From the NCBI RefSeq assembly GCF_006376685.1, contig NZ_VEWL01000004.1, positions 62,001-126,000 on the forward strand: 64,000 nt of DNA, in the 5' to 3' direction. Below the pieces are notes generated by a model. It did not search any database, was not told the DNA's origin, and worked only from the letters and a program-made list of their open reading frames with translations. A program made the translations under genes and the position numbers. This document shows, piece after piece, positions 35,506 through 64,000 of the stretch (positions are counted from its first letter, which is position 1; every line of letters begins with the position of its first letter). Source of the stretch: Ochrobactrum teleogrylli (GTDB lineage: Bacteria > Pseudomonadota > Alphaproteobacteria > Rhizobiales > Rhizobiaceae).

Positions 35506-35511
35506 CTAGCT

Positions 35512-47061: not shown

Positions 47062-47850
47062 TTAGCCCTGAACAAGCGCCAATGCGCGCACGGGCGATCC
47101 CGTACCAGCGACGAATTTCAAAGGCGCGGCGATCAGGATCGCACCCTTTGCCGGCAGCTGGTCGAGATTGCTGAGGCTTGCAAGGCCGTAGCGATTGGCT
47201 TCATGCAGCAGATGATGCGCCGGGAAGGGCGGGGTCATGCCGCCTGCCGAACCGGCATCGGTGCCGATGGTTTCCTGACCCCAGCCGATGATCCCCTTGG
47301 AGAGCAGATAGCGGATCGCTTCCGCAGTCGGGCCGGGCGAATGCGGGCCATTCTCGTCGGCATTCAGGAATGTCTCGCTGGAGCCGTTGCGCTTGTACCA
47401 GTCGGTGCGCAGGATCACCCATGAGCCGGCTTCAATCTCGCCATGCTCGGCTTCCCACTCCTGGATGCTTTCCACCGTCAGGAGATAATCCGGGTTGGCC
47501 GTTGCTTCTGCAGAGCGGTCGATCACATTGACCGGCGCGACGAAGTTCTGCGGCGGGATGGTGTCGGTCGTGTTGTTCGCGTGGTCCTTGCCCGTGACCC
47601 AATGGCAGGGAGCATCAAAATGCGTTCCCGTATGTTCGCCAAGTTCGATCCAGTTCCACGCCCAGAACGGACCGTCCTGATTGTATTTGCTGATCTCGTG
47701 GATCTTCACATTCGGAGTGTTTTTGCCGAATTGCGGCGGGAGATAAAGCACTGGCGTATCGGGCCCGAGCGGCGCGGTAATATCCACGACCTTGATCGAT
47801 TGCGATACCAATGCGGATGCAAGTCCGGTGAGAACGGATGTCTCTTTCAT
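47062..47850 (-). CDS. Cyclase-family metal-dependent hydrolase, isatin hydrolase-like
   Basis: The 262-residue protein belongs to the cyclase family (PF04199), which includes bacterial kynurenine formamidase (KynB) and isatin hydrolase. The metal-binding motif is ELGEHTGTHFDAPCHWVTG. Further segments VVDITAPLGPDTPVLYLPP, DGPFWAWNWIELGEH, IGTDAGSAGGMTPPFPAHH and LPAKGAILIAAPLKF look closer to what I remember of isatin hydrolases than to KynB, including length. It would open isatin to isatinate in the cytoplasm. The gene has its own promoter region and stands 400 bases from a MarR gene that begins the aromatic cluster. The isatin assignment is from memory of the family; other cyclic amides or esters are possible. 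Confidence 0.72.
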   Translation of the reverse strand: MKETSVLTGLASALVSQSIKVVDITAPLGPDTPVLYLPPQFGKNTPNVKIHEISKYNQDGPFWAWNWIELGEHTGTHFDAPCHWVTGKDHANNTTDTIPPQNFVAPVNVIDRSAEATANPDYLLTVESIQEWEAEHGEIEAGSWVILRTDWYKRNGSSETFLNADENGPHSPGPTAEAIRYLLSKGIIGWGQETIGTDAGSAGGMTPPFPAHHLLHEANRYGLASLSNLDQLPAKGAILIAAPLKFVAGTGSPVRALALVQG

Positions 47851-47939
47851 AGTTTCCCTCGTCTTTGCCGCTCTCGACCCAGTGTGGGTGGAGCTACGGA
47901 TTTGTGCAATGGCTTCTTTGAGCCTTGAGGAGAAAGCTA

Positions 47940-47961
47940 TGCAATATCATATGACTTTGCA
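47940..47961. promoter_or_regulatory. 22-bp imperfect palindrome upstream of the isatin-hydrolase-like gene
   Basis: The element is TGCAA, two bases, TCATATGA, two bases, TTGCA: 18 of 22 positions are symmetric, including the perfect core TCATATGA. It lies 90 bases upstream of the hydrolase start. This shape suits a MarR-family dimer, and a marR-type gene stands divergently on the other side of the gap. Confidence 0.45.
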
Positions 47962-48198
47962 AGTATTTAAGTGGTTCTCATGCGCCGATAAACATCACAA
48001 ATTGCCGTGAAATCTTTTTTTATCGGGCTTTCCTTGCGGCGCCGGAATGGGGCGCCACAACAAGAAATATATGCATTTAGAAATAATGTGGCGGTGAGGT
48101 CGTTTTCCGCGCGGAAAAAAGGGTGTTTCGCGGTCTTTCGCAGGGCTTTTGGACAATTTATTTAAGGCTTGAAATATTTTCCGGCAAACGCGATTCTT

Positions 48199-48244
48199 AA
48201 AGCACGGATTATGGCTCGATTCCTGAGCCTGACCAGCGTGCTTT
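48199..48244. promoter_or_regulatory. Nested inverted repeat in front of the marR-type gene
   Basis: Outer arms AAAGCACG (48199-48206) and CGTGCTTT (48237-48244) are exact reverse complements, and inner arms GGCTC (48213-48217) and GAGCC (48225-48229) also pair. The structure ends a few bases before the AAAGGAA ribosome-binding site of the MarR gene. It could be an autoregulatory operator or a leader hairpin. Confidence 0.5.
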
Positions 48245-48255
48245 GAATAAAGGAA

Positions 48256-48759
48256 ATGGGCGTGTCGGTGGATTTCGAGATCATAGTCAGCGACGATCAT
48301 GAAAGCGAAAAGCCGGAATTGCGTCTCTGGCTGCGCATGCTGTCCACCACCAAGCTGGTCTCGCAGGAAATCCGGCGGCGTCTGCGCAATGAATTCGGCG
48401 CGACACTGCCGCAATTCGATTTGCTGGCGCAGCTCTATCGCGAGCCGGAAGGCTTGCGGCTGGGAGAACTGTCACGCCGCACGATGGTAACCAATGGCAA
48501 TGTCACCGGTCTGGTGGAACGGCTGGAAACCGAAGGTCTGGTGAAACGTGAGACGCCGGGCGCCGATCGTCGCGTCACGGTGGCCCGTCTGACGGATCAG
48601 GGCATTTCGGTGTTCAGCCAGATGGCCAAAGCCCATGAAGGCTGGCTGCGGGAAATGATGGCCGATGTCGATCACGATATCATCCAGACCCTGCTGGCCG
48701 ATCTCGATCCGCTGAAGAAGTCGGTGCGAAACCATCTTTCCGGGGCGGAAGACGAATAA
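48256..48759 (+). CDS. MarR-family transcriptional regulator 1
   Basis: The 167-residue protein has the MarR winged-helix core: LWLRMLSTTKLVSQEIRRRL (dimer helix), LPQFDLLAQLYREPEGLRLG, the recognition region LSRRTMVTNGNVTGLVERLE, and wing VKRETPGADRRVTVARLTDQ. MarR proteins often respond to aromatic acids or their CoA thioesters. It converges with the leftward beta-oxidation-like operon 22 bases downstream and is divergent from the isatin-hydrolase-like gene, so either is a plausible target. A second MarR gene lies at 61739. Similar aerobic 2-aminobenzoate clusters in other bacteria also contain a MarR gene, from memory. Confidence 0.85.
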   Translation: MGVSVDFEIIVSDDHESEKPELRLWLRMLSTTKLVSQEIRRRLRNEFGATLPQFDLLAQLYREPEGLRLGELSRRTMVTNGNVTGLVERLETEGLVKRETPGADRRVTVARLTDQGISVFSQMAKAHEGWLREMMADVDHDIIQTLLADLDPLKKSVRNHLSGAEDE

Positions 48760-48781
48760 GCCGTCTCCCGCCTGCCGGTTT

Positions 48782-50755
48782 TTATTTTGCCTGATCACTT
48801 GTTGCAAACATGGGGCCGCCCTTGATCGACGGGAAGCCATAGCCGTTGACCAGAACCAGATCGATATCGTCGGAATGGCGCGCAATGCCTTCTTCAAGCA
48901 GGGCTTGCCCTTCATGCGCCATGGCGGCGAGCAGACGCTGCATGATCGCTTCATCGCTGAAACTACGCGGAACAATGGCGTTTCGCGCACGGTAATCATC
49001 GATCAATGCGTGGACGTCCGGATCGTTTGTGCGAACACCATCCGCATAGCGATACCAGCCGAGGCCAGCCTTGCGGCCAAAACGCCCGGCTTCGCATAAT
49101 TTGTCGGCAACATCGAAATAGGGAAGGTTTGGGTCGCGGCTTGCTGCCGCTCTCTTGCGCCGCGCCCAGGCAATTTCCAGCCCGGCCATGTCGTAAACCG
49201 CGAAAAGCCCCATCGGAAAGCCATAGGCTTCCATGGCGCGATCGATATCTTCGGGATAGGCGCCTTCGGCCAGCATTTTCTCGGCTTCCGTGCGATAGGC
49301 CGAAAACATCCGGTTGCCGATGAAGCCTTCGCAGACACCGGTGACGATGGGCAGCTTCTTGATCTTGCGGGCAAAAGCGATGCCGGTTGCAAGCGTCTCA
49401 TCGGACGTTTCCGCGCAGCGCACCACTTCCAGAAGCCGCATGATATTGGCTGGCGAGAAGAAATGGAGCCCCAGCACCTGGTCGGTGCGGTTGGTGACGG
49501 CGGCCAGCTCATCCGGATTGAGATAGCTCGTATTGGTCGCCAGAATGGTTGCCGCAGGCAGCAACGCGTCAAGCTCGCGGAACAGCGAGGCCTTGACGTT
49601 GAAATCATCGAAGACGGCTTCGATGACGAGATCGGCATCGGCCAGTGCGGACATGTCGGCGCTGACGGACAGCTTCGCGCGTTGGGCGTCAGCGGCCTCA
49701 GCGGAAAGCCTGCCGGTATCGACAGCCTTCTGAATCATATCGCTGATCCGCGCATGGCCCTTGGCGGCGGCTTCTGCAGTCGTTTCATAGCCGATGACCT
49801 TGTAGCCAGCAGCAAGGCAGGCGACGGCGATGCCTGATCCCATCAGGCCGGTTCCGGCGATGCCGATAGTGGAAAGAACACGAGGCTTTGCCTCCATGCC
49901 TTCCACTTTTCCAGCGGCGCGTTCGGCAAAGAATAGGTGCCGCAAGGCGGCAGCCTCTTCGCTGTCGCGCAGGCGGATGAAGGTTGCGCGTTCTTCGGCC
50001 AGACCGTCGGCAATCGCGGTCGTTGTCGAGAGCTGCACCAGCCGCGCGGCTTCGCCGGGGGCGGTCGCGCCGCGTGCCTTTTTCAGGATTTTGGCCTTGG
50101 CTTGTTCAAAGGCTGTAGCATCCGGCGCGGTAACCGGCAGATCGCCGGTCCGACGCAACGGCTTGCCGACCAGCGCATTGGCGAGCGCGATGGCGTCGGC
50201 CACAAGGTCGCCGACCGATATCTGGTCAATGAGGCCCAATTGCTGCGCTTCGTCCGGGGCGATCTGGCGTCCGGTGGCGATCATGTCGAGCGCTGCCAGC
50301 GGTCCGATCAATCGGGGCAGGCGCTGCGTGCCGCCAGCGCCGGGCACGATCCCGAGCTTGACCTCCGGCAGGGCAAAGGATGCGCTGGTCGATGCGATCC
50401 GCGCGTGAGCGGCAAGTGCAACCTCCAGTCCGCCGCCCAAAGCGGGACCGTTGATTGCGGCCACCACGGGCTTGTCAGCGCTTTCGATGAGCGTGATGAC
50501 ATCCGGCAATGTCGGTTCGACCGGCGGCTTGCCGAATTCGCGAATATCCGCCCCGCCGATGAAGATTTTGCCAGCGCCGCTCAGCACGGTAGCGCGGATC
50601 GCCGCGTCTTCTGACGCATGGCGAATGGCTGCGGCAAAACCTTTGCGCACCTCGGCGGAGGTGGCATTGACCGGCGGGTTATCGACCGTGACGACAAGAA
50701 TGCCATCGACAACCGTGCCTGTCATAGCGGCGGAGAATTCGCTTCTATCGGCCAT
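48782..50755 (-). CDS. Bifunctional enoyl-CoA hydratase / 3-hydroxyacyl-CoA dehydrogenase
   Basis: The 657-residue fusion has an N-terminal crotonase domain (VVTVDNPPVNATSAEVRKGF, oxyanion-hole segment SGAGKIFIGGADIREFGKPP, AAINGPALGGGLEVALAAHA, GIVPGAGGTQRLPRLIGP). The 3-hydroxyacyl-CoA dehydrogenase domain begins near residue 295 (GIAGTGLMGSGIAVACLAAG, LVIEAVFDDFNVKASLFREL, LGLHFFSPANIMRLLEVVR with the catalytic His, GFIGNRMFSAYRTEA). ATG 50755 (MADRSEFSAAM) is the best start; a longer frame reaches 50827 inside the RidA gene. It would hydrate and oxidise the alicyclic CoA intermediate made by the fused monooxygenase. It is last in the leftward operon starting at 56356. Confidence 0.9.
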   Translation of the reverse strand: MADRSEFSAAMTGTVVDGILVVTVDNPPVNATSAEVRKGFAAAIRHASEDAAIRATVLSGAGKIFIGGADIREFGKPPVEPTLPDVITLIESADKPVVAAINGPALGGGLEVALAAHARIASTSASFALPEVKLGIVPGAGGTQRLPRLIGPLAALDMIATGRQIAPDEAQQLGLIDQISVGDLVADAIALANALVGKPLRRTGDLPVTAPDATAFEQAKAKILKKARGATAPGEAARLVQLSTTTAIADGLAEERATFIRLRDSEEAAALRHLFFAERAAGKVEGMEAKPRVLSTIGIAGTGLMGSGIAVACLAAGYKVIGYETTAEAAAKGHARISDMIQKAVDTGRLSAEAADAQRAKLSVSADMSALADADLVIEAVFDDFNVKASLFRELDALLPAATILATNTSYLNPDELAAVTNRTDQVLGLHFFSPANIMRLLEVVRCAETSDETLATGIAFARKIKKLPIVTGVCEGFIGNRMFSAYRTEAEKMLAEGAYPEDIDRAMEAYGFPMGLFAVYDMAGLEIAWARRKRAAASRDPNLPYFDVADKLCEAGRFGRKAGLGWYRYADGVRTNDPDVHALIDDYRARNAIVPRSFSDEAIMQRLLAAMAHEGQALLEEGIARHSDDIDLVLVNGYGFPSIKGGPMFATSDQAK

Positions 50756-50762
50756 GGCGGTC

Positions 50763-51158
50763 TCAGTCCGGTATAACGGCAAAAGCCTGTATTTCGATCT
50801 TGGCCCGGTCTTCGACCAGCGCGACAACCTGCACCGCCGCCATGGCGGGGAAGTGCTTGCCGATCACATCACGATAGGCGCGACCGATGCCTTTCAGATT
50901 GGCGGTATATTCAGCCTTGTCGGTGAAATACCAGGTCATGGAGGCGATATGCTCCGGCCTGCCGCCAGCTTCCGCCAGAATGGCGACAATGTTTTTCAAT
51001 GTCTGCTCGGTCTGCTCGACGAAATCGTCGGTCTCGAACTGTTGCTGTTCGTTCCAGCCGATCTGGCCGCCGATATAGACGGTGCGCCCACGCGCTTCAA
51101 CGCCATTGGCATATCCGATGGGGCGGGCCCAGCCTTGCGGCTGCAGTGTCCTATGCAT
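50763..51158 (-). CDS. RidA/YjgF-family enamine/imine deaminase
   Basis: The 131-residue protein has the RidA fold: WARPIGYANGVEARGRTVYI, GGQIGWNEQQQFETDDFVEQ, TLKNIVAILAEAGGRPEHIA, and the C-terminal VVALVEDRAKIEIQAFAVIP with the conserved Glu. RidA proteins hydrolyse reactive enamines and imines to ketones and ammonia. In this operon that activity makes sense: reduction of 2-aminobenzoyl-CoA should give an enamine-type alicyclic CoA ester that must lose its nitrogen. The gene is 34 bases after the acyl-CoA dehydrogenase gene and 7 before the hydratase/dehydrogenase fusion. Substrate is inference. Confidence 0.85.
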   Translation of the reverse strand: MHRTLQPQGWARPIGYANGVEARGRTVYIGGQIGWNEQQQFETDDFVEQTEQTLKNIVAILAEAGGRPEHIASMTWYFTDKAEYTANLKGIGRAYRDVIGKHFPAMAAVQVVALVEDRAKIEIQAFAVIPD

Positions 51159-51192
51159 GTTGTGTCTCCAGAAAATACGTGCGGGGCAGGCG

Positions 51193-52368: not shown

Positions 52369-52370
52369 CG

Positions 52371-53222
52371 TCAGTTCCCCTCGAAAACGGGCTTCTGCTT
52401 GGCAGCGAAAGCCTCGAAGGCGCGGCGGAAATCCTGCGTTGCCATGCAGATCGCCTGCGCCTGCGCTTCCGATTCCACCAGTTCTTCAATGCCCATGGCC
52501 CATTCCTGATTGAGCATGGTTTTGGTCATGCCATGCGCGAACCATGGACCGTCGGCAATATTGCGCGCCAGCGCTTCGGCCTTGCCCAGAAGATCGCCCT
52601 GCGGGTGCAGCGCGTTGAAAAAGCCCCAGCGCTCGCCTTCGTCAGCGCTCATGAAACGGCCGGTATAAAGCAGTTCCGATGCCCGGCCCTGACCGATCAG
52701 TCGCGGGAGAATGCCGCATGCGCCCATATCTGCGCCTGCGAGACCGACGCGGGTGAAGAGGAAGGCTGTCTTGGCTTCCGGTGTTGCGATGCGCAAATCC
52801 GAGGCCATGGCCAGTATGGCGCCAGCGCCAGCGCAAATGCCGTCAACGGCGGCAATGATCTGCTGCGGACATTTGCGCATGGCCTTGACGACATCGCCGG
52901 TCATGCGCGTGAAAGCCAGAAGATCGGGCATTGTCATATGGGTCAGCGGTTCGATGATCTCGAACACATCGCCGCCCGACGAAAAGTTTCCGCCAGCGCC
53001 GGTCAGCACGATAGTGCGCACGTCGGAGGCATAGACGAGATTGCGAAACAGATCGCGCAGCTCGGCATAGCTTTCAAATGTCAGCGGGTTTTTCCGGTCC
53101 GGGCGGTTCAGGGTCAGCGTGGCAACGCGACCGTCTTCGCTTGTTTGCCATAGAAAATGCGTGGCCTGATAGTCCTTGAAAGGCTTCAGATTGCTCGCCA
53201 TCGAAGTCGTGCCGTCGGTCAT
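52371..53222 (-). CDS. Enoyl-CoA hydratase/isomerase family protein
   Basis: The 283-residue crotonase-fold protein contains [20 protein letters not shown], the oxyanion loop [40 protein letters not shown], and [23 protein letters not shown] 53222 overlaps the stop of the SDR gene by 4 bases (ATGA), which settles the start; MASNLKPF at 53201 is the alternative. It sits third in the operon, after the fused monooxygenase and SDR genes, and probably acts on an alicyclic CoA ester, by hydration or hydrolytic ring opening. The precise reaction cannot be read from the motifs. Confidence 0.88.
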
Positions 53223-54019
53223 CCTGCCATTACCTCCCCACCGGCGATTGCAATCGCCTGTCCAGTTATCGATTGCGCGCCGGGCGATGTGAGCCACAGC
53301 ACGGTTTCAGCCACCTCTTCTGGCTGTATCAGGCGTCCCTGCGGGTTCGCCTTGACGAATTCTGCCAGAACATCTTCCTCCGACCGTCCGGTCTTGGCGA
53401 CAATGGCCGCAATCGAGCGTGAGATGATCGGCGTATCGGTAAAACCGGGGCAAACGGCGTTGACCGTCACGCCCTTGCGGGCGAGTTCCAGCGCCAGCGC
53501 GCGGGTCAGACCCACGACCCCGTGCTTTGCGGCGCAATAGGCCGAGACATAAGCATAGCCGCTCAGGCCCGCCGTGGAGGCGATATTGATGATGCGCCCG
53601 CCTTTGCCGCCCGCCTTGATGTCATCGAGGGTCGCCTGCGTCACATTGAAAACGCCTGTCAGATCGACATCGAGAACGCGGCTCCACATGTCGAGACTGG
53701 TTTTCTCAAACGGCGCGCTCGGTGCTTCTCCGGCATTGTTGATAAGAATGCTGACAGGCCCGAATGCGGCGCGCGCGCTGTCCAGCCCGGTTGCGATGGC
53801 TTCGCGGTTGGTCACATCGAACCCATCGGCAATAAAGCACCGTTGCCAGTCCAGAAGGGCGGCGGTTGCTTCCAGCGGTTCGCGGCGGCGACCCGCCAGG
53901 GTCACATTTGCCCCGGCGCGCGCAAGTCCGACCGCGATAGCGGCGCCGATGCCGCTACCGGCGCCGGTGACCAGCGCATGCTTGCCGGAAAGGGCAAGGC
54001 CAACAGCGGCATCGTTCAT
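53219..54019 (-). CDS. Short-chain dehydrogenase/reductase
   Basis: The 266-residue Rossmann-fold protein has the classical SDR set: [20 protein letters not shown] (cofactor loop), [13 protein letters not shown] (NNAG), [20 protein letters not shown] with the catalytic Ser, and [20 protein letters not shown] with Tyr and Lys. [12 protein letters not shown] after the second strand suggests NADP(H), because of the basic residues. It lies 12 bases after the fused monooxygenase gene and overlaps the hydratase gene by 4 bases. It may oxidise or reduce the ring hydroxy or keto group of the CoA-bound intermediate. Confidence 0.9.
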
Positions 54020-54031
54020 CGCAATCTCCCG

Positions 54032-56560: not shown

Positions 56561-56590
56561 TTGACACAGTTTAGAATTGGAAAATATGCT
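56561..56590 (+). promoter_or_regulatory. Promoter of the indolepyruvate oxidoreductase operon
   Basis: TTGACA (56561-56566) and TATGCT (56585-56590) are 18 bases apart and about 45 bases upstream of the ATG at 56637. A direct repeat ATGCAAATG flanks the promoter, at 56522-56530 and 56592-56600, exactly 70 bp apart. AAGGGGAA before the ATG is the ribosome-binding site. Confidence 0.6.
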
Positions 56591-56636
56591 GATGCAAATG
56601 AATTGATATTCCGGCGAACGGAAAAGGGGAATTGTC

Positions 56637-58790
56637 ATGGCGGAGCGCTCATTCGCCCGTGAGGTCGAGGATCTGAAGCTCGGCGAAGGCGATATTTTCA
56701 GTGGCGAGGGCATTCTCGCCATCACCAAGGCGCTGTTGCAGTCAGGCGTGTCCTATGTCGGCGGCTATCAGGGCTCGCCGATTTCGCATCTTATGGACGT
56801 TCTCGCCGATGCGAAGGACGTGATGGAAGATCTCGGCGTCCATTTCGAATCGTCCGCATCGGAAGCTGCGGCTGCGGCCATGCTTTCCGCTTCCGTGATG
56901 TATCCGGTGCGCGGCGCAGTAACGTGGAAATCGACGGCTGGCACCAATGTCGCCTCCGACGCCCTGTCCAACCTTGCCTCCGGCGGGGTGACTGGTGGCG
57001 CGCTGGTCATTATCGGCGAGGATTACGGCGAAGGTTCCTCCATCATGCAGGAGCGCAGCCACGCCTATGCGATGAAATCACAAATGTGGCTTTTGACGCC
57101 ACGGCCCAATCTGCCTTCGATCGTGGAAGCCGTTGAAAAAGGCTTCGAACTGTCGGAAGCCTCCAACACGCCGGTCATGTTGCAGGTGGGCATTCGCAGC
57201 TGCCATGTGCATGGTCAGTTTGTGGCGAAGGATAACAAGCGGCCCGCCCACACGCTGGCCGAAGCGCTGGAAAATCCAAGGCGCGATGTGAACCGCATCG
57301 TCCTGCCGCCTGCATCTTTCCTGCACGAGAAGGAAAAGCTCGAAAAGCGCTGGCCCGCAGCCGTCGAGTTTGTCAAAGCCAATCGTCTCAATGAATATTT
57401 CGGTCCGCAAGAGGGCGATGTCGGCATCATCCTTCAAGGTGGGCTTTACAACAGCGCTATGCGCGCCTTGCAGCAAATGGGGCTGGCCGATGTTTACGGC
57501 GAAAGCCGCGTTCCGCTCTATGTGATGAATGTCGCCTATCCGATGATAGACGATGAAGTCATCGACTTCGTCGCCGGCAAAAAAGCCGTGGTGATGCTGG
57601 AGGAGGGCGCGCCTGAATATATAGAGCAGGCGCTGCATACGCTGCTGCGCCGCCGTGATATCCAGACGAAACTGTCCGGCAAGGATGTGCTGCCGCTGGG
57701 CGGCGAATACACAACGCCCGTGCTTTTGAAGGGCCTGACGGCATTCTTTGATGCGCATGCGCCCCAATTGCTCGGCAACCGTCCGCCGCTGCCCGATCCA
57801 TCGCCGGTTCTGGCTGATGAGCGCGTCAAGGCGCTGGCAGAAGTGGTGCCGCCGCGCCCCGCCGGTTTCTGCACCGGTTGCCCGGAGCGCCCGATCTTCG
57901 CCGCCATGAAGCTGGTGGAAAAGGAGCTGGGCGAGCATCACGTGTCTGCCGATATCGGCTGCCACCTCTTTTCCATTCTGCCGCCGTTCAATCTCGGTGG
58001 CACGACCATGGGTTATGGCCTTGGCCCGGCCTCGGCTTCCGCTTTCAATGTGCCTGCGGGCAAACGCTCCATTTCGGTGATGGGCGATGGCGGTTTCTGG
58101 CACAACGGTCTCGCCACTTCAGTCGGCAATGCCGTTTTCAACAAGCAGGATGGCGTCATCCTTGTGGTCGACAATTACTATTCGTCGGCGACGGGCGGTC
58201 AGGATGTGATGTCCTCCAGAGCGATCAATCCGCGCCGCAAGACCAACAATTCCATCGTCGATGCAGTCAAGGGAATTGGTGCGGGCTGGGTTCGCCAGAT
58301 CGACCACACCTATGACGTTGCCAAGATGCGCGACACGCTGAAGGAAGCGCTGACGACGGAAGAAAAAGGCCCGAAGATCATCGTGGCGTCGTCGGAATGC
58401 ATGCTCAACAAGCAGCGCCGCGTGAAGCCGCAATTCGCCAAGGCCGTCAAGGACGGCAAGCGGATGGTCAAGCAGCGTTTCGGCGTCGATGAAGATGTCT
58501 GCACCGGCGATCACGCCTGTATCCGCCTGTCGGGTTGCCCGTCGCTTTCGGTGAAGCATACCGACGATCCGCTGAAGGACGATCCGGTCGCGGCCATCGA
58601 CAATTCCTGCGTCGGTTGCGGCAATTGCGGTGAAGTTTCGGAAGCGGCGGTTCTGTGCCCGTCCTTCTATCGCGCCGACGTCATTCACAATCCAACGGGT
58701 TGGGACAAGTTCATGCATCGCCTGCGCTCCGGTGTCATTGGCTGGCTGCAAAAGCGCCGCCGCGCGTCGCGCATAGTCTTTGCGGATTGA
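56637..58790 (+). CDS. Indolepyruvate ferredoxin oxidoreductase alpha-type subunit
   Basis: The 717-residue protein has the thiamine-diphosphate oxidoreductase plan of IorA: an N-terminal pyrimidine-binding/transketolase-like part (YVGGYQGSPISHLMDVLADA, SSASEAAAAAMLSASVMYPV), then GFCTGCPERPIFAAMKLVEK, and the diphosphate-binding MGDGGFWHNGLATSVGNAVF followed by VDNYYSSATGGQ. The C-terminus carries ferredoxin-like cysteines: VCTGDHACIRLSGCPSL and SCVGCGNCGEVSEAAVLCPS. The second cluster motif looks complete; in the first the spacing is altered. The enzyme family converts aryl pyruvates to aryl-acetyl-CoA. It is followed by the beta-type subunit, separated by 10 bases. Confidence 0.88.
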   Translation: MAERSFAREVEDLKLGEGDIFSGEGILAITKALLQSGVSYVGGYQGSPISHLMDVLADAKDVMEDLGVHFESSASEAAAAAMLSASVMYPVRGAVTWKSTAGTNVASDALSNLASGGVTGGALVIIGEDYGEGSSIMQERSHAYAMKSQMWLLTPRPNLPSIVEAVEKGFELSEASNTPVMLQVGIRSCHVHGQFVAKDNKRPAHTLAEALENPRRDVNRIVLPPASFLHEKEKLEKRWPAAVEFVKANRLNEYFGPQEGDVGIILQGGLYNSAMRALQQMGLADVYGESRVPLYVMNVAYPMIDDEVIDFVAGKKAVVMLEEGAPEYIEQALHTLLRRRDIQTKLSGKDVLPLGGEYTTPVLLKGLTAFFDAHAPQLLGNRPPLPDPSPVLADERVKALAEVVPPRPAGFCTGCPERPIFAAMKLVEKELGEHHVSADIGCHLFSILPPFNLGGTTMGYGLGPASASAFNVPAGKRSISVMGDGGFWHNGLATSVGNAVFNKQDGVILVVDNYYSSATGGQDVMSSRAINPRRKTNNSIVDAVKGIGAGWVRQIDHTYDVAKMRDTLKEALTTEEKGPKIIVASSECMLNKQRRVKPQFAKAVKDGKRMVKQRFGVDEDVCTGDHACIRLSGCPSLSVKHTDDPLKDDPVAAIDNSCVGCGNCGEVSEAAVLCPSFYRADVIHNPTGWDKFMHRLRSGVIGWLQKRRRASRIVFAD

Positions 58791-58800
58791 GGAACAGGCC

Positions 58801-60351
58801 ATGGCCACACTGAATGCATCGCCGTCCGCTCTTCTTTCGCAGGACAAACCACTGTCAATTGCCATCCTCGCCATGGGTGGTCAGGGCGGCGGCGTTCTGG
58901 CCGACTGGGTCGTTGCGCTGGCGGAAACCAATGGCTGGGTCGCGCAGACAACTTCCGTGCCCGGCGTGGCGCAGAGAACCGGTGCGACGATCTATTATCT
59001 CGAACTGTTGCGGGCCCGCGAAGGGGCGCATCCGATCCTGTCGCTGATGCCGACGCCGGGCGACGTCGATATCGTCATTGCGGCTGAACTGATGGAAGCG
59101 GGGCGCTCGGTTCTGCGCGGTCTCGTGACGCCAGACAAGACCTTGCTGATCACCTCCACCCATCGCTCCTTTGCGGTGGGCGAAAAGGAAAAGCCGGGCG
59201 ATGGCATCGGCAATCCGGTGGTCGTCGAGGACGCAACAGCCTTTGCCGCGCGCAAGACCATCGCCTTTGACATGGAAGCGCTGGCAACGAAAAGCGGCAG
59301 CGTGGTGTCTTCAGCTCTGTTCGGCGCGCTTGCCGCTTCCGGCGCTTTGCCCTTCGACAAAGCCGCCTTTGAAACGACGATCAAGTCTGGCGGCAAAGGC
59401 ATAGAGGCCAGTCTCAGAGCTTTTGAAGCTGCCTATCAGCGCGCGCTTGGCGGCGCGAATGACAAGCTAGCGGCAACGCCCGCAAAGCGGCTCGACCCTC
59501 TGCCCGAACGGTCCGATCATCCAGCGCTGGATAGGCTTATCCAGCGCATTCGCAGCGAGTTTCCGGGTGAATGCCATCCGATGTTTTTCGCAGGCATCAA
59601 GAAACTGACCGAGTTTCAGGACCCGGCCTATGCGGATGAATATTTGACCCGCTGCGCCGCCTTGCTCAAGGCCGATCGCGATAATGGCGGTGCGGCGCAT
59701 GGTTTTGCCTTCACCGAACAGGCGGCAAAATATGTCGCTGTCGCCATGGCTTATGACGATGTGGTCCGGGTGGCGGATATCAAGGTGCGCGGCTCGCGGT
59801 TCGAGCGGGTGCGCAAGGAAATCGGCCTCAAGAAGGACCAGATCGCCTATACGACCGAATATATGCACCCGCGCATGGAAGAAGTGTGCGGCACCTTGCC
59901 GAAAGGCATCGGCGCATGGATTGAAAATCGCCCCAAACTCTTCGCATGGCTCGACAAGCGTGTCAGCAAGGGTCGCCGGGTAAACACGGGAACGCTGTTC
60001 TGGTTCACCGGGCTTTATGTCGTTTCGGGCCTGCGTCGTTTCCGGCGCGGCAGCCTGCGCCATCAGCGTGAGGTCGAACATCGTGAAGCCTGGCTGGCAC
60101 AGGCGCTGGCTGTCTTGCCCAAGAACTATGATCTCGCGGTCGAGGTTCTTGGTTGCCGTCGTCTGGTCAAGGGCTACTCCGATACGCATTCGCGTGGCCT
60201 GTCGAAATTTGACCGTGTCCTATCCGCCTTGCCTGTTCTGACTGAGCGGGACGACGGCGCGGCCTGGCTCCGGCGTCTGCGGCAAGCCGCCCTGCTGGAC
60301 GAACAGGGCATCGCGCTCGATGGCGCGCTGAAGACAATCGCGACGCTCTGA
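58801..60351 (+). CDS. Indolepyruvate oxidoreductase beta-type subunit with C-terminal extension
   Basis: The 516-residue protein starts with the gamma-type catalytic domain of 2-oxoacid oxidoreductases (IAILAMGGQGGGVLADWVVA, VPGVAQRTGATIYYLELLRA, near residues 20-220). Some 290 further residues follow (IRSEFPGECHPMFFAGIKKL, VRVADIKVRGSRFERVRKEI, KLFAWLDKRVSKGRRVNTGT, EVLGCRRLVKGYSDTHSRGL) that are not in archaeal IorB but occur in proteobacterial versions (DUF6537-like). GAGGA precedes ATG 58801. It should form a complex with the product of the preceding gene. The partner electron carrier is not encoded nearby. Confidence 0.85.
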   Translation: MATLNASPSALLSQDKPLSIAILAMGGQGGGVLADWVVALAETNGWVAQTTSVPGVAQRTGATIYYLELLRAREGAHPILSLMPTPGDVDIVIAAELMEAGRSVLRGLVTPDKTLLITSTHRSFAVGEKEKPGDGIGNPVVVEDATAFAARKTIAFDMEALATKSGSVVSSALFGALAASGALPFDKAAFETTIKSGGKGIEASLRAFEAAYQRALGGANDKLAATPAKRLDPLPERSDHPALDRLIQRIRSEFPGECHPMFFAGIKKLTEFQDPAYADEYLTRCAALLKADRDNGGAAHGFAFTEQAAKYVAVAMAYDDVVRVADIKVRGSRFERVRKEIGLKKDQIAYTTEYMHPRMEEVCGTLPKGIGAWIENRPKLFAWLDKRVSKGRRVNTGTLFWFTGLYVVSGLRRFRRGSLRHQREVEHREAWLAQALAVLPKNYDLAVEVLGCRRLVKGYSDTHSRGLSKFDRVLSALPVLTERDDGAAWLRRLRQAALLDEQGIALDGALKTIATL

Positions 60352-60393
60352 CAAAGAGCGCGCCTCTCCAATTCAAAATAAAAGGGGAAAGCT

Positions 60394-61701
60394 ATGTCTC
60401 AAGCCCAGAGCATAGACGCGCCGGCTGTTGCCGGAAAGGAAATATCGGCAGGCAAAAGCCTGCTCGTCGTCGGCCTGTGCTGGCTCGCGATTTTCGCGGA
60501 AGGCTATGATGTCGGTGTCATCGGGGCCATTCTGCCCGCCTTGTCGGTCGATCCGGTCTGGCAACTAACGCCGATAGAGCTTGGCGCCATCGGCAGTTAC
60601 ACGGTGATCGGCATGCTGATCGGCGGCATTCTTGCTGGTACGTTGAGCGAGCTTCATGGACGCAAACCGCTGTTCATCGCCTGCATCACCCTGTTTTCGC
60701 TGTGCATGATCGTCAGCGCCATGGCGCCGTCCCCGTTCATCTTCGGATTGAGCCGGTTCATTTCGGGCATCGGTCTTGGCGGGATTATTCCGGTCGCAGC
60801 CGCGCTGACAGTGGAATATTCCCCGATCAAGAAGAAGAGCTTCAACTACGGTCTCATGTATTCGGGCTATTCAATGGGATTGCTTGCCGCAGCCTTGTGC
60901 GGTCGCGGTTTTCTTGAAGCGCATGGCTGGCGCACCATCGTGCTGATCGGCGCCATCCCGCTGCTGTTTGTCCCGATCTTCCTCGCATTCCTGCCTGAAA
61001 GCGTGGAATCGCTAGTCCAGCGCGGCAAGCACGATGCGGCCCGCAAGACGGCGGTACGCATGGGCGTCGGCGTTCCGGCGGCGATTGTCCGCAAGCATGG
61101 CAAGGTTGGCTGGCGCACGGTGTTCGGTGAAATCTTCTCCCCGAAAAAGGCGTTCGAAACCGCCTGCTTCTGGATCGCGCTCTTCATGGGTCTGCTGCTG
61201 GTTTATGGCCTCGCACAATGGCTGCCGCAGATCATGCGCAAGAACGGTTACGACCTCGGCAACAGCCTGCTGTTCCTCGCAGTCTTCAGTCTCAGCTCGG
61301 CAATCGGCGGTATTGTGCTTGGCACTTGGGCGGATCGCTTCGGTGTGCGCCGCACGGTCGCCTGTTCCTATGCGCTGGGTGCGCTCGGCATTGTGGCGCT
61401 TGCCTTCAAGGGTTCGTTGCTGATGAATTATGTGTTCGTGGCCATTGCCGGTTTCGGAACCGTTTCCGCGTCGCTGGTTCTCACCGGCTTCCTGGCCCAG
61501 CGCCTCGATTCCTCGATCCGGTCGGCCGGTACCGGCTGGGCATTGAGCTTTTCCCGTATCGGCGCCCTGTCGGGCCCGCTTCTCGGTGGACTGATCGCCA
61601 GCCTCAATGTCGGTCCGCAGTGGAACTTCTACATCTTTGCCATCGTCGCCGCTCTGGCCGCAGTGGCAACCGCGCTGATCCCGTCGCGTTCGACGGATTG
61701 A
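60394..61701 (+). CDS. Aromatic acid:H+ symporter-type MFS carrier
   Basis: The 435-residue protein has 12 predicted helices and AAHS-family motifs: AEGYDVGVIGAILPALSVDP in helix 1 with the conserved acidic residue, GTLSELHGRKPLFIACITLF (motif A), FGLSRFISGIGLGGIIPVAA and GTWADRFGVRRTVACSYALG. Carriers of this family (PcaK, BenK and relatives) import benzoate-like and other aromatic acids. It is 42 bases downstream of the oxidoreductase genes and probably shares their transcript. In this cluster anthranilate, an indole acid or a kynurenine-type compound would be reasonable substrates. Confidence 0.87.
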   Translation: MSQAQSIDAPAVAGKEISAGKSLLVVGLCWLAIFAEGYDVGVIGAILPALSVDPVWQLTPIELGAIGSYTVIGMLIGGILAGTLSELHGRKPLFIACITLFSLCMIVSAMAPSPFIFGLSRFISGIGLGGIIPVAAALTVEYSPIKKKSFNYGLMYSGYSMGLLAAALCGRGFLEAHGWRTIVLIGAIPLLFVPIFLAFLPESVESLVQRGKHDAARKTAVRMGVGVPAAIVRKHGKVGWRTVFGEIFSPKKAFETACFWIALFMGLLLVYGLAQWLPQIMRKNGYDLGNSLLFLAVFSLSSAIGGIVLGTWADRFGVRRTVACSYALGALGIVALAFKGSLLMNYVFVAIAGFGTVSASLVLTGFLAQRLDSSIRSAGTGWALSFSRIGALSGPLLGGLIASLNVGPQWNFYIFAIVAALAAVATALIPSRSTD

Positions 61702-61710
61702 TCGTCTGAA

Positions 61711-61739
61711 ATGCCGGTTCGCCCAGGGCGGGCCGGCAT
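61711..61739. terminator. Hairpin between the convergent MFS and marR2 genes
   Basis: ATGCCGG (61711-61717) pairs with CCGGCAT (61733-61739), and inner CGCCC pairs with GGGCG around a single base. The hairpin fills the gap between the two stops. There is no T-run on the right strand, so termination strength is uncertain. Confidence 0.55.
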
Positions 61740-62245
61740 CAAACTTCGTTTTTACGGATGTTTCGCAGCATTTTCTGCAAAGTGCCGACAAAGGCGCGAT
61801 GTTCGTCCTCATCGATGCCTTCGAACAATTGCAGCAGCAGGTCGTACATCGCGGGCCAGGCTTCATTGAAGACGTTTCGGCCTTCTTCCGTCAGCGAGAT
61901 GTCACGGATGCGCATGTCTTCGGCGCGGGCCTGTCGGCGGATGTAACCCTGCTCTTCAAGCGAATCCAGTGTGCGGCTCATCGTGGATTGCTCGGTAACG
62001 GTAAAGACCGCCAGTTCGTTGATCGTCGCGGAAGGCGTGACGCTCAAAACCGCCAGCGTTCGCAATTTCACCGTCGAGATCTGGCGATCTTTGAGCGATT
62101 CCGCGAGATTGGCATTATAGCGCGCCATTAGACGGTTCATCAGGTAGGGCGCAAAGCTGTTCAGGCCGATCTCGCCCAGCGAACGGGCGGGGTTATCCTC
62201 CTGATGCTCGGAAGCCAGAACCGTACCTGAGAAGCGTTCCTCCAT
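61739..62245 (-). CDS. MarR-family transcriptional regulator 2
   Basis: The 168-residue protein has a MarR core: YLMNRLMARYNANLAESLKD, ISTVKLRTLAVLSVTPSATI, the recognition region ELAVFTVTEQSTMSRTLDSL, and wing YIRRQARAEDMRIRDISLTE. I chose ATG 62245 (MEERFSGTVL) because GAGGGA is 5 bases upstream; ATG 62260 adds five residues. It lies leftward between the MFS carrier and the hydrolase and ligase genes. It differs from the MarR at 48256, so the cluster probably has two aromatic sensors. Likely targets are the palindrome at 56415 and its own operon, by position only. Confidence 0.85.
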   Translation of the reverse strand: MEERFSGTVLASEHQEDNPARSLGEIGLNSFAPYLMNRLMARYNANLAESLKDRQISTVKLRTLAVLSVTPSATINELAVFTVTEQSTMSRTLDSLEEQGYIRRQARAEDMRIRDISLTEEGRNVFNEAWPAMYDLLLQLFEGIDEDEHRAFVGTLQKMLRNIRKNEV

Positions 62246-62281
62246 GAATTCCCTCGTCATAGATCATGGTTGCAACAGTCA

Positions 62282-62311
62282 TGCGCCGGATGCATTTTGG
62301 CATCAGGCGCA
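62282..62311. repeat. Interrupted hairpin upstream of marR2
   Basis: TGCGCC/GGCGCA (62282-62287 and 62306-62311) with inner GATGC/GCATC and one unpaired base on each side form a 30-base stem-loop. It lies between the arylformamidase-like gene and the marR2 start. No T-run follows; an operator or a transcript-processing stem are both possible. Confidence 0.45.
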
Positions 62312-62450
62312 ACAAGGCGCTCTCATCGGTGTTAATATCGGTTGCGGAAAGATGCCAGTGAAAAGCGAGCCTGAAACGACAATCGCATCGACCTTCCCGC
62401 CCAGATCTCTGAAAACACCGCCGGTTTGGCCGTCGGATCGCAGGTTGGTG

Positions 62451-63287
62451 TCAGGGGCAGAGAAATTGGACGGCGCGGCTTTCGGGATCGCAAAGCGTAT
62501 CGATCACATTGCAATGATGCGTGCCGTCGATTTCCCAGGCGCTGGTCTCGATCCCCAATCCGTACCAGATGTTTGCCAGCAGCGCATTTTGCCGCCTGAA
62601 TTCCATCAGCTCGTCGCCGCCGACACAGCAATGCACGGCGATGTCCGTACGCGGGCGCTGGAGAGCGGCGCTTTCCGCGACAGCTTCCGCGGCATCCATA
62701 TGGAAAATATCGTTCATTGCGGTCTTGAGCAGCGGGCGCAGATCATGCAGCCCGCTGATGGAAAGGACACCTTTGATCCGCTCAGCCGTTGCGGCGGCTA
62801 TGGGCGCGTTTTCGCAGGCCATGCGGCTGACCAGATGGCCGCCTGCGGAATGGCCGGTCAAGGCAATGTCGCCGTCCACTTCCTGCGCCAGATGGTCGAG
62901 GAAGCGACCGATTTCCAGCGTGATGCCGGAAATCCGCACTTCGGGGCAGAGCGTATAGCTTGGCATGGCCACGCGATAACCGCGCGCAAGCGCGCCTTGC
63001 GCCAGATGCGACCAGAAACTTTTATCCAACCCCTTCCAATAGCCGCCATGGACGTAAACAACGGTGCCCTTGGCCGAGCCGTCCGGCAGGAAAAGATCGT
63101 AGTGGTTGCGTGCGCCGTCGCCATAGGCAATGTCGGGTATCAAACGGCCCTGATCGCGCATTTTTTCGCGAAAGCTGGAGGCCAGTTCCGTCCAGCGCGG
63201 CGGATAGCTGGCGGAATCGCTGATAGCTTTCATATTGTCATAGGCGGTATCGAAGTCGTGAAGCACTGAATTCTCCTGCATATCCAT
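62451..63287 (-). CDS. Alpha/beta hydrolase, arylformamidase-like
   Basis: The 278-residue protein has the alpha/beta-hydrolase fold with the HGGYW oxyanion motif (VYVHGGYWKGLDKSFWSHLA) and nucleophile ALTGHSAGGHLVSRM, both as in eukaryote-type kynurenine formamidase. The catalytic acid is probably in CCVGGDELMEFRRQ and the His in GTHHCNVIDTL. Such enzymes remove the formyl group from N-formylkynurenine or formylated aryl amines. I suggest ATG 63287 (MDMQENSVLHD) or 63281; no strong ribosome-binding site decides. It is 12 bases downstream of the ligase gene and probably coupled to it. In the anthranilate context, N-formylanthranilate or N-formylkynurenine are logical substrates. Confidence 0.8.
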   Translation of the reverse strand: MDMQENSVLHDFDTAYDNMKAISDSASYPPRWTELASSFREKMRDQGRLIPDIAYGDGARNHYDLFLPDGSAKGTVVYVHGGYWKGLDKSFWSHLAQGALARGYRVAMPSYTLCPEVRISGITLEIGRFLDHLAQEVDGDIALTGHSAGGHLVSRMACENAPIAAATAERIKGVLSISGLHDLRPLLKTAMNDIFHMDAAEAVAESAALQRPRTDIAVHCCVGGDELMEFRRQNALLANIWYGLGIETSAWEIDGTHHCNVIDTLCDPESRAVQFLCP

Positions 63288-63299
63288 GCGCAAGCCGCG

Positions 63300-64000
63300 T
63301 CAGGCGCGGGCTTCGCTAGCCGCCTGCGCACGCAGGGCGGATCGCTGCAATTTTCCGGATTCCGTCTTGGGCAGGCTGGAAACCCAGCATATCACGCGCG
63401 GATATTTATAAGGCGCGAGTTCGCTTTTGACATGGCTTTGCAGAGTTTCCTGCAAGTTCTGGTCGCCATTATAGCCCTCGTTCAGCACCACATAGGCTTT
63501 TACGATGCAGCCCCGTTCGTCATCGGGCGCTGCCACCACGCCGCATTCCGCCACGGCCGGATGCGCGAGCAGGCTGGCCTCGACCTCCGGTCCGGCAATG
63601 TTGTATCCGGCGGAAACGATCATGTCGTCATTGCGCGCCTGATACCAGAAATAGCCGTCCTCATCCATGACATAGGTATCGCCGGTGATGTTCCAGCCAT
63701 TCTCCACATATTTGGTCTGGCGCGGGTCGGCCAGATATTTGCAGCCGAGTGGCCCGCGAACGGCAAGGCGTCCGGGCGTGCCGGGCGCGCATTCCTGCCC
63801 GTTGTCATCGATCACGCGCGCTTCATAGCCGGGGATTGGCTTGCCAGTCGCGCCGGGGCGAATATCCTTTTCCGGCGCGGAGATGAAGATATGCAGCATT
63901 TCCGTGGCACCGATGCCGTCCGCCAGCGAAAGCCCGGTCGCGCGTTTCCACGCTTCGAAAGTGGGGAGCGGGAGGGCCTCACCGGCTGAAACACATTTGC
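63300..64000 (-). CDS. Aryl-CoA ligase (benzoate/2-aminobenzoate-CoA ligase family), 3' part only
   Basis: The frame is open to the right edge, so the N-terminal half lies outside the window; about 232 residues are visible. They belong to the AMP-dependent synthetase family: SAGEALPLPTFEAWKRATG, motif A5 DGIGATEMLHIFISA, the ATP-binding WNITGDTYVMDEDGYFWYQA (family TGD), the hinge RNDDMIVSAGYNIAGPEVEA, and the C-terminal lysine region PRVICWVSSLPKTESGKLQR. DGIGATEMLHIF is characteristic of benzoate-CoA ligase relatives. It should activate the aromatic acid as its CoA thioester for the fused monooxygenase. It is followed by the arylformamidase-like gene. Confidence 0.9.
   Translation of the reverse strand, partial: KCVSAGEALPLPTFEAWKRATGLSLADGIGATEMLHIFISAPEKDIRPGATGKPIPGYEARVIDDNGQECAPGTPGRLAVRGPLGCKYLADPRQTKYVENGWNITGDTYVMDEDGYFWYQARNDDMIVSAGYNIAGPEVEASLLAHPAVAECGVVAAPDDERGCIVKAYVVLNEGYNGDQNLQETLQSHVKSELAPYKYPRVICWVSSLPKTESGKLQRSALRAQAASEARA

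What the first reader, a model, noticed from the sequence alone, without database searches (positions are those of the whole stretch)
47062..64000. Putative indole/isatin-to-anthranilate route feeding an aerobic 2-aminobenzoyl-CoA pathway
One contiguous region encodes an isatin-hydrolase-like enzyme, an arylformamidase-like hydrolase, an aryl-CoA ligase, the fused monooxygenase/old-yellow-enzyme architecture of 2-aminobenzoyl-CoA monooxygenase/reductase, SDR, two crotonase-type enzymes, acyl-CoA dehydrogenase, RidA, IorA/IorB-type oxidoreductase, an aromatic-acid carrier and two MarR regulators. The family knowledge is the Azoarcus evansii aerobic 2-aminobenzoate pathway. The inference is that several tryptophan-derived inputs (isatin, N-formyl aryl amines, indolepyruvate) join at anthranilate. 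I know of no description of this combined locus in Brucella.
Basis: partly seen in the sequence, partly recalled or inferred. Interest (0 to 1): 0.8.

Follow-up and report, generated by a model that had tools for sequence, protein, structure and literature searches.

The report
Isatin and anthranilate breakdown gene cluster
A soil-type relative of Brucella carries a gene cluster that probably breaks down isatin and anthranilate by a known aerobic coenzyme-A route, and the way its genes travel together suggests that an enzyme labelled as acting on indolepyruvate instead makes the key intermediate directly from isatin, a step for which I found no assigned enzyme.

Summary
The region encodes an aerobic 2-aminobenzoyl-CoA (anthranilate) pathway: fused monooxygenase/old-yellow-enzyme, SDR, enoyl-CoA hydratase, acyl-CoA dehydrogenase, RidA, hydratase/3-hydroxyacyl-CoA dehydrogenase and an anthranilate-type CoA ligase. 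It also has an isatin hydrolase with the published motifs and an IorAB pair. The window edge cut an operon that continues about 7.6 kb: ABC importer, cupin, flavin monooxygenase.

No tryptophan dioxygenase was found, and the only ring-hydroxylating oxygenase found is unlike IadD. IorA fails the indolepyruvate-oxidoreductase cut-off.

Best reading: isatin hydrolase makes isatinate (2-aminophenylglyoxylate), which IorAB converts oxidatively to 2-aminobenzoyl-CoA, bypassing anthranilate and ligase. Support: GLAS-type isatin hydrolase lies within 12 kb of IorAB at 19 of 20 places held; both genes occur in the same 12 of 35 genomes of the genus; three genomes have isatin hydrolase, IorAB and trunk genes but no recognisable ligase. 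Nine of twelve such genomes do keep a ligase. A second, quinolone-like input is a guess. No biochemistry was tested.

The parts
47062..47850 (-). Isatin hydrolase, B type (GLAS), 262 aa
   Evidence: Cyclase PF04199 133 bits; PDB Isatin hydrolase B 4j0n 407 bits; motifs HxG[T/A]HxDxPxH, GLAS, WAWNW; the only PF04199 match found in the genome
48256..48759 (+). MarR regulator 1, homologous to the MarR found inside many 2-aminobenzoyl-CoA operons
   Evidence: MarR_2 50 bits; MarR1 homologues beside SDR and ECH in relatives
48782..50827 (-). Fused enoyl-CoA hydratase / 3-hydroxyacyl-CoA dehydrogenase
   Evidence: 3HCDH_N 189, ECH_1 141, 3HCDH 101 bits
50763..51158 (-). RidA-family protein, probable enamine/imine deaminase of the pathway (role inferred)
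   Evidence: Ribonuc_L-PSP 78.5 bits
51193..52368 (-). Acyl-CoA dehydrogenase
   Evidence: Acyl-CoA_dh_1 154 bits
52371..53297 (-). Enoyl-CoA hydratase family protein, possible ring hydrolase (role inferred)
   Evidence: NF006107 491 bits, cut-off 330
53219..54019 (-). SDR oxidoreductase
   Evidence: adh_short 192 bits
54032..56356 (-). 2-aminobenzoyl-CoA monooxygenase/reductase type fusion (ABMR), 774 aa
   Evidence: NF006101 1375 bits, cut-off 1078; FAD_binding_3 3-328 + Oxidored_FMN 406-734
56637..58790 (+). IorA-type TPP/Fe-S 2-oxoacid oxidoreductase subunit; proposed isatinate:2-aminobenzoyl-CoA oxidoreductase subunit A
   Evidence: TPP_enzyme_C 56 bits; IOR_alpha 269 bits, cut-off 651 not reached; GDGG and 11 of 12 Cys invariant in 45 rows; clade B of the tree
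58780..60351 (+). IorB-type subunit with DUF6537; proposed subunit B of the same enzyme
   Evidence: NF006179 720 bits, cut-off 348; IOR_beta 35, cut-off 206 not reached
60394..61701 (+). MFS carrier of the aromatic-acid/H+ symport kind
   Evidence: TIGR00895 260 bits, below its cut-off of 419
61739..62260 (-). MarR regulator 2, of the kind that sits between isatin hydrolase and IorA in relatives
   Evidence: PDB 3cjn 136 and 7kym 101 bits; 48-64% identical MarR2 in IH-MarR-IorA-IorB blocks
62451..63293 (-). Alpha/beta hydrolase (HSL/kynurenine-formamidase-like), proposed N-acylanthranilate amidase of the second branch
   Evidence: NF058665 330 bits, cut-off 320; PDB 2pbl 243, a lipase 9n8r 105, kynurenine formamidase 4e11 71 bits
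63300..64000 (-). Anthranilate-type CoA ligase, cut by the window edge (full gene L003:1300-2928). Beyond the window on the same strand: LivFGMHK, cupin, flavin monooxygenase; divergent AraC
   Evidence: PDB 4wv3 306 bits; benz_CoA_lig 383 bits, cut-off 375; gene map

Best explanation
The cluster is an aerobic 2-aminobenzoyl-CoA catabolic island with two feeder branches. Branch 1: isatin is taken up (perhaps by the MFS carrier), isatin hydrolase opens it to isatinate (2-aminophenylglyoxylate, an alpha-keto acid), and IorAB, a thiamine-diphosphate/Fe-S 2-oxoacid oxidoreductase, decarboxylates it oxidatively with CoA straight to 2-aminobenzoyl-CoA, without ligase or ATP. MarR2 probably controls this unit. 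Branch 2: the operon of ABC importer, cupin, flavin monooxygenase, amidase-like hydrolase and ligase delivers anthranilate from an unidentified N-aromatic compound, and the ligase makes 2-aminobenzoyl-CoA. Common trunk: the fused monooxygenase/reductase hydroxylates and reduces the ring, RidA probably removes the enamine nitrogen, and SDR, hydratases, acyl-CoA and 3-hydroxyacyl-CoA dehydrogenases carry out ring opening and beta-oxidation. Shown here: the genes, their families, motifs and conserved linkage. Inferred: every reaction, above all the IorAB substrate and branch 2.
For: Isatin hydrolase (IH): 407 bits to Isatin hydrolase B and the motifs. IH-IorAB link: in 289 class genomes 9 have IH (E<=1e-40), and all 9 are among the 43 with IorB over its cut-off; of 35 genomes of the genus, host included, the same 12 have both, on one contig 12 of 12. 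Over the 36 IH places held, GLAS-type IH lies within 12 kb of IorA/IorB at 18 of 20, or 19 counting G531, which is split over two fetched pieces, against 5 of 13 GLQC-type (Fisher on 19/20 p = 7e-4); counting only places that picked for IH it is 14 of 15 against 2 of 10 (my recount). The order IH-MarR-IorA-IorB recurs, in Sulfitobacter indolifex with no Rieske oxygenase in the 31 kb fetched. All 22 IH-linked IorA rows fall in one tree clade, none in the other. IorAB appears to stand in for the ligase: a ligase (>=45% identical) lies within about 12 kb of ABMR or its trunk genes in 3 of 12 IH-IorAB-linked loci against 24 of 28 unlinked (hand tally; p = 4e-4); G334 and G633 (100% complete) and G202 (92%) have IH, IorAB and trunk genes but no ligase at the level searched. 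Published data fit in part: Variovorax strains lacking the whole iad region but overexpressing iadC-K2 accumulate C8H7NO3 and C7H7NO (passages of PMC12633357); C8H7NO3 was identified as isatinic acid in Pseudomonas LY1 (passage), C7H7NO fits 2-aminobenzaldehyde (my assignment).
Against: No enzyme assay or expression datum. The same Variovorax strain restores anthranilate without iadAB, and the preprint's revised route puts C8H7NO2, not isatin (C8H5NO2), before the isatin-hydrolase-like IadI, so isatin and isatinate may be side products there. Nine of the 12 linked genomes, the host among them, keep a ligase, so IorAB is not the only source of 2-aminobenzoyl-CoA. The replacement statistics weaken by genus (4 of 7 against 3 of 21, p = 0.043) and, for absence from the genome, from p = 0.026 (3/12 against 0/26) to 0.078 when the 64%-complete G193 is counted (3/12 against 1/27); 6 of the 12 are one genus (g226), and nothing is corrected for descent. 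G608, G504 and G560 also lack a ligase match, and the last two show no IorAB in the stretch fetched. Clade B also holds IorA rows without IH within 14 kb, among them the host's own second copy and Ruegeria pomeroyi; of the 8 clade-B rows that came from the IorB search only 4 are IH-linked. G160 and G029 carry clade-A IorAB beside tryptophan dioxygenase and kynureninase and keep a ligase elsewhere. Where isatin would come from in this host is unknown.
Confidence: 0.55

Rival explanations
1. One reading: isatin hydrolase gives isatinate, which becomes anthranilate by an unnamed step; IorAB oxidises indolepyruvate from tryptophan; the formamidase-like hydrolase deformylates N-formyl aryl amines; all inputs meet at anthranilate.
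For: The automatic names read so. Published IAA work reports isatinic acid, then anthranilate (PMC9613470 passages). IorAB of the other clade sits beside tryptophan dioxygenase and kynureninase in G160 and G029.
Against: The indolepyruvate-specific models are missed by a wide margin; no tryptophan dioxygenase found; IorAB tracks isatin hydrolase; none of the cluster's Pfam matches is an aminotransferase.
Confidence: 0.16
2. IorAB is an arylpyruvate or arylglyoxylate enzyme of broad use that is merely co-regulated with isatin hydrolase; isatinate goes to anthranilate by spontaneous oxidation or another enzyme, and only the ligase makes 2-aminobenzoyl-CoA.
For: Anthranilate forms without iadAB in Variovorax; G589 has isatin hydrolase beside the operon with a ligase and no IorAB in the 20 kb fetched; IorAB copies without isatin hydrolase nearby exist; 9 of 12 linked genomes keep a ligase.
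Against: Three genomes with trunk genes and IH-IorAB but no ligase; GLAS-type isatin hydrolase nearly always beside IorAB; isatinate has the arylglyoxylate structure that related enzymes use (recalled chemistry).
Confidence: 0.24
3. The fused flavoprotein is a salicylyl-CoA 5-hydroxylase and the cluster degrades salicylate, not anthranilate.
For: NCBI names the family 'bifunctional salicylyl-CoA 5-hydroxylase/oxidoreductase'.
Against: The ligase is nearest to an anthranilate-CoA ligase; RidA, isatin hydrolase and beta-oxidation genes make sense for an amine; ligase and fused flavoprotein are reported for anthranilate in Azoarcus evansii (review passages) and Arthrobacter Rue61a (passages).
Confidence: 0.05
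4. For branch 2 (independent of the above): the flavin monooxygenase (FMO) hydroxylates a 4-quinolone-type or indole-type ring, a quercetinase-like metal cupin cleaves it as a 2,4-dioxygenase with loss of CO to an N-acylanthranilate, and the alpha/beta hydrolase frees anthranilate: the plan of the Arthrobacter quinaldine upper pathway with a metal cupin in place of the cofactor-free Hod.
Confidence: 0.25

Closest known systems
Aerobic 2-aminobenzoate (anthranilate) CoA pathway of Azoarcus evansii (Schuehle 2001: recalled; review passages PMC4539516)
   Same: CoA ligase, fused monooxygenase/reductase, beta-oxidation enzymes; MarR, a RidA-type protein and an ABC binding protein (these three recalled from the abstract)
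   Different: Isatin hydrolase and IorAB linked to the operon; ligase in a separate operon with importer, cupin, flavin monooxygenase and hydrolase
iad indoleacetate-degradation locus (Variovorax, Bradyrhizobium; PMC9613470 passages)
   Same: IorA/IorB homologues (IadA/IadB), MarR; in Azospirillum thermophilum IorAB and IadCDE-like genes run directly into the 2-aminobenzoyl-CoA operon
   Different: No IadD-like oxygenase found in this genome, so no indoleacetate entry of that type
Phenylglyoxylate:acceptor oxidoreductase (recalled; no call)
   Same: Would do the same chemistry: arylglyoxylate + CoA to aryl-CoA + CO2
   Different: Different subunit make-up (recalled); IorAB is two subunits with a cysteine-rich ferredoxin-like tail on IorA
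Quinaldine upper pathway of Arthrobacter Rue61a (PMC3534580 passages)
   Different: A metal cupin would replace the cofactor-free alpha/beta-hydrolase-fold dioxygenase (PMC6479552 passages); substrate unknown

Membership tests
Aerobic 2-aminobenzoyl-CoA pathway | Fused flavin monooxygenase + old yellow enzyme protein | tested here: met
   774 aa, two domains, NF006101 over cut-off
Aerobic 2-aminobenzoyl-CoA pathway | 2-aminobenzoate-CoA ligase | tested here: inconclusive
   Nearest solved relative is an anthranilate-CoA ligase, but specificity needs an assay
Aerobic 2-aminobenzoyl-CoA pathway | Clustered beta-oxidation genes, RidA and MarR | tested here: met
   similar sets in relatives
Isatin hydrolase | Metal motif HxG[T/A]HxDxPxH, GLAS/GLQC, aromatic pocket WXW/FXW | tested here: met
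   Motif definitions from PMC6117287 passages; present
Isatin hydrolase | Hydrolysis of isatin | not testable with these tools
   -
Bacterial kynurenine formamidase KynB | TIGR03035 cut-off (isatin hydrolase gene tested) | tested here: not met
   39.5 bits, cut-off 223
Indolepyruvate ferredoxin oxidoreductase (IOR) | IOR_alpha and IOR_beta cut-offs | tested here: not met
   269 of 651 and 35 of 206 bits
Indolepyruvate ferredoxin oxidoreductase (IOR) | TPP motif and Fe-S cysteines of a 2-oxoacid oxidoreductase | tested here: met
   GDGG 45 of 45 rows; 11 of 12 cysteines 45 of 45, the twelfth 44 of 45
iad indoleacetate locus | IadD/IadE Rieske oxygenase | tested here: not met
   Single PF00848 match in the genome, 27% identical over 204 aa to the IadD-like protein of Azospirillum
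iad indoleacetate locus | IadA/IadB (IorA/IorB type) | tested here: met
   77.6% and 62.4% identical to IorAB beside the IadCDE-like genes of Azospirillum; not compared with the Variovorax proteins themselves
Kynurenine pathway input | Tryptophan 2,3-dioxygenase | tested here: not met
   No PF03301 match in the host genome
Quercetinase-type cupin dioxygenase | Fold and metal-binding residues | tested here: inconclusive
   Best fold matches are quercetinases but other cupins are close; H54, H56, E61, H95 invariant in 19 rows; activity untested
Kynurenine formamidase (alpha/beta hydrolase type) | Relation to characterised formamidase | tested here: inconclusive
   4e11 71 bits, a lipase 105 and a putative esterase 243 bits

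The most novel reading that the evidence does not exclude
Isatin-hydrolase-linked IorAB, and with it IadAB of auxin-degrading bacteria, is a CoA-acylating isatinate:acceptor oxidoreductase that makes 2-aminobenzoyl-CoA directly, so that the isatin route enters the aerobic CoA pathway without passing through free anthranilate.
Probability: 0.45. Interest if true: 0.75.

Novelty: new variant of a known kind. Interest (0 to 1): 0.6.

Why it matters
The fate of isatinate and the role of IadA/IadB in auxin-degrading loci were not assigned in the passages I saw. One assay, isatinate + CoA to 2-aminobenzoyl-CoA, would settle the central claim, correct a common 'indolepyruvate oxidoreductase' label, and join isatin, indole and perhaps auxin breakdown to a pathway that needs no anthranilate dioxygenase. 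If branch 2 is a quinolone route, it would also offer a candidate set of quinolone-degrading genes.

Tried and rejected
IorAB as a full replacement of the ligase: suggested by G160 and G029, whose operons show no ligase, but both keep one elsewhere (53-54% identical), so dropped for them; it stands only for G334, G633 and G202. G193 (64% complete) and G025 (86%) also lack a ligase match but are too incomplete to weigh.

IAA input: sought through IadD-type oxygenase, not found. Kynurenine input: tryptophan dioxygenase not found; kynureninase was not searched in the host. Solved-structure match for IorA: none at E <= 0.01. A further recurrent gene in the FMO module that would name its substrate: none seen beyond close relatives among the 25 clusters printed. 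A tested ligase on the Rue61a plasmid as a yardstick: not among the rows shown (60 of 120 records each). The Azoarcus paper PMC95408 is not held, so it is cited from recall and review passages.

How the counts were made: G247 and G159 (only ABMR in view), G462 and G465 (ABMR not in view), G001 and G154 (IH-IorAB not near it) and G589 and G384 (no IorAB) were left out of the 12-against-28 tally, which I assembled by hand and tested. In some linked loci (such as G540, G330, G395, G440, G593) ABMR is only partly in view at the edge of the stretch; G649 was counted as having a ligase nearby because it adjoins the trunk genes. In one search I first set the unlinked ligase-free count at 0 of 27; one search corrects it to 1 of 27 (G193), or 0 of 26 without it. 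The four short matches L163-L166 were left out of the 42 FMO loci; several of the 42 are cut by contig ends. Places were chosen for isatin hydrolase and those for IorB, so tree and motif counts are not an unbiased sample; 24 IorB places were in the tree. The tree is the quick one; the careful search did not finish. On checking I lowered the main confidence from 0.58 to 0.55 because the preprint's revised route counts against isatin as the IadI substrate, and split the cupin idea from the novel case, whose odds had been too high for two claims at once.

Full report
What is there. The window is G000:C34:62001-126000 of a 4.76-Mb genome. Read with the piece beyond its edge (L003), the region holds: isatin hydrolase (IH); MarR1; the trunk HCDH-RidA-ACAD-ECH-SDR-ABMR on the minus strand; IorA-IorB-MFS on the plus strand; MarR2; and a second minus-strand operon FMO-cupin-LivKHMGF-ligase-hydrolase with a divergent AraC gene, whose best named model is the anthranilate-dioxygenase regulator AndR, far below its cut-off (111 of 350 bits). 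The window also carries repABC genes at 34230-38016, so the cluster sits about 9 kb from a repABC replication locus. Genus members with the FMO module are B. haematophila, B. pecoris, B. cytisi and Ochrobactrum spp.; isatin hydrolase is in 12 of 35 genus genomes, host included.

Trunk. ABMR reaches 1375 bits against a cut-off of 1078 and has both domains. In 28 operon loci of the class (27 genomes) without linked isatin hydrolase and IorAB, subsets of SDR, MarR, ECH, ACAD, ligase, thioesterase and RidA recur around ABMR, often with a Liv importer (my reading of the rows). Arthrobacter Rue61a shows CoA esters that fit hydroxylation, reduction and deamination of 2-aminobenzoyl-CoA (passages); the deamination is where RidA would act (inference). 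One ring-hydroxylating oxygenase alpha subunit was found in the genome, unlike IadD (27% over 204 aa) and, as I read its neighbour gene (recalled), of the glycine-betaine type; so no anthranilate 1,2-dioxygenase is apparent.

Isatin hydrolase. The protein aligns over its whole length with Isatin hydrolase B (407 bits) and A (304 bits), and weakly with KynB-type kynurenine formamidase. It carries the metal motif, GLAS and the aromatic pocket defined by Sommer et al. (passages; check).

IorAB belongs with isatin hydrolase. In the same 289 class genomes, isatin hydrolase (E <= 1e-40) is in 9 and IorB over cut-off in 43; all 9 have IorB. The four close isatin hydrolases (58-100%) lie within 12 kb of IorB, the five distant ones (47-51%) on other contigs. 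In 398 phylum genomes, 25 have isatin hydrolase (E <= 1e-60); the neighbourhoods fetched next (26 stretches from 23 genomes) show IH-MarR2-IorA-IorB in that order in ten genomes, an IH-MarR2 pair beside IorB-IorA and the operon in G531, and IorA-IorB next to isatin hydrolase in G584, G633 and G608. Over all 36 isatin-hydrolase places held, GLAS-type ones are within 12 kb of IorAB at 18 of 20 (19 with G531, split over L224 and L225), GLQC-type at 5 of 13. Because some places had been picked for IorB, I recounted those picked for isatin hydrolase alone: 14 of 15 against 2 of 10. The one unlinked GLAS case, G589, has the ligase beside isatin hydrolase and the operon. In the genus the same 12 of 35 genomes carry both, on one contig in each, though they may be inherited as a block, one copy is broken (G656) and one IorB is only 62% identical (G673).

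What IorAB does. Isatinate is an arylglyoxylate, and TPP 2-oxoacid oxidoreductases turn such acids into acyl-CoA esters (recalled chemistry). The product would be 2-aminobenzoyl-CoA, the substrate of ABMR. Three predictions were checked. First, IorAB should cluster with isatin hydrolase rather than with tryptophan genes: so it is for clade B (22 of 29 rows IH-linked; 4 of 8 among rows from the IorB search); clade A (16 rows) has no isatin-hydrolase link, and two of its rows sit beside tryptophan dioxygenase and kynureninase. Second, catalytic motifs should be intact: they are, though in both clades. Third, the ligase should become dispensable: a ligase (>= 45% identity) lies within about 12 kb in 3 of 12 linked loci (G000, G593, G649) and 24 of 28 unlinked loci (p = 4e-4), and G334, G633 and G202 have no ligase match at that level (best 28-32% in G202; none at E <= 1e-60 in G334 and G633); each of the three has ABMR, SDR, MarR, ECH, ACAD and RidA together. 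Against this, 9 of the 12 linked genomes keep a ligase, and by genus the contrast is 4 of 7 against 3 of 21, p = 0.043. None of these tests is corrected for descent.

Literature. Conway et al. 2022 list IorA/IorB homologues as IadA/IadB in iad loci and give no function in the passages I saw. The 2025 preprint assigns iadC-K2; the words iadA and iadB do not occur in its text, and C8H7NO3 and C7H7NO accumulate strongly only in strains overexpressing iadC-K2, built in the background without the iad region (passages). C8H7NO3 was read as isatinic acid in another IAA degrader (passage of PMC8383072). The preprint also revises the route: C8H7NO2 rather than isatin precedes IadI, and anthranilate forms without iadAB; both count against a simple transfer of my reading to auxin loci. 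Searches for isatinate, isatinic acid, isatic acid, aminophenylglyoxyl, phenylglyoxylate with 2-aminobenzoyl-CoA, and for iad with indolepyruvate oxidoreductase, brought no paper that proposes this step in the listings and passages seen (only openly licensed papers are held).

Second branch. Among 42 loci with a related FMO, the cupin is within 12 kb in 29, the importer in 24, the ligase in 19, the hydrolase in 16, AraC in 14, and ABMR or at least three trunk genes in 12; gene orders differ between Brucella/Ochrobactrum, Paracoccus, Beijerinckiaceae and Acetobacteraceae loci, and plasmids of Paroceanicella and Roseivivax repeat the link. The FMO is nearest 2rgj/3c96, recalled as PhzS. The cupin model (first sequence from B. 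haematophila) is nearest quercetinases, over its full length, but other cupins follow closely. Together with the alpha/beta hydrolase this repeats the logic of the quinaldine upper pathway (passages), where the 2,4-dioxygenases described are cofactor-free (passages of PMC6479552). That this cupin does the same is a guess I put at about one in four.

Verdict. The finding is real; its 'several tryptophan-derived inputs' are only partly supported. The pathway itself is known. The new element is a testable function for IorAB/IadAB, supported by linkage, tree and ligase absence but by no biochemistry.

Noticed in passing
window 34230-38016 (-): repABC replication/partition genes (RepC, RepB and RepA over their NCBIfam cut-offs): the contig belongs to a repABC replicon and the cluster lies about 9 kb from these genes.
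   Followed up: partly
G000:C4:133590-135095 (L176:10579-14314): A second IorAB copy in the host (IorA 79%, IorB 61% identical) next to MaoC-like, MarR and luciferase-like genes, partly like the context of Pukyongiella L169; substrate unknown.
   Followed up: partly
L173:11992-12444: In Ruegeria pomeroyi a related cupin (50%) sits inside the 2-aminobenzoyl-CoA operon between acyl-CoA dehydrogenase and ligase, with no FMO in the stretch, near a tryptophan dioxygenase-hydrolase pair. Its role there is unexplained.
   Followed up: no
L108:8098-12480, L117:2434-10424: In G160 and G029, IorAB of the other clade is near tryptophan 2,3-dioxygenase and kynureninase (TIGR01814 over cut-off) in a cluster with the same operon; this IorAB may use another 2-oxoacid.
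   Followed up: partly
window 43241-46992: MFS carrier, Ldh_2 malate/lactate-type dehydrogenase and a GntR/FCD regulator next to the cluster; probably unrelated.
   Followed up: no
G656:C2:439340-440907: One congeneric genome has an IorB gene matched in two overlapping pieces with stops, and only a short isatin hydrolase match on the same contig; described only.
   Followed up: no
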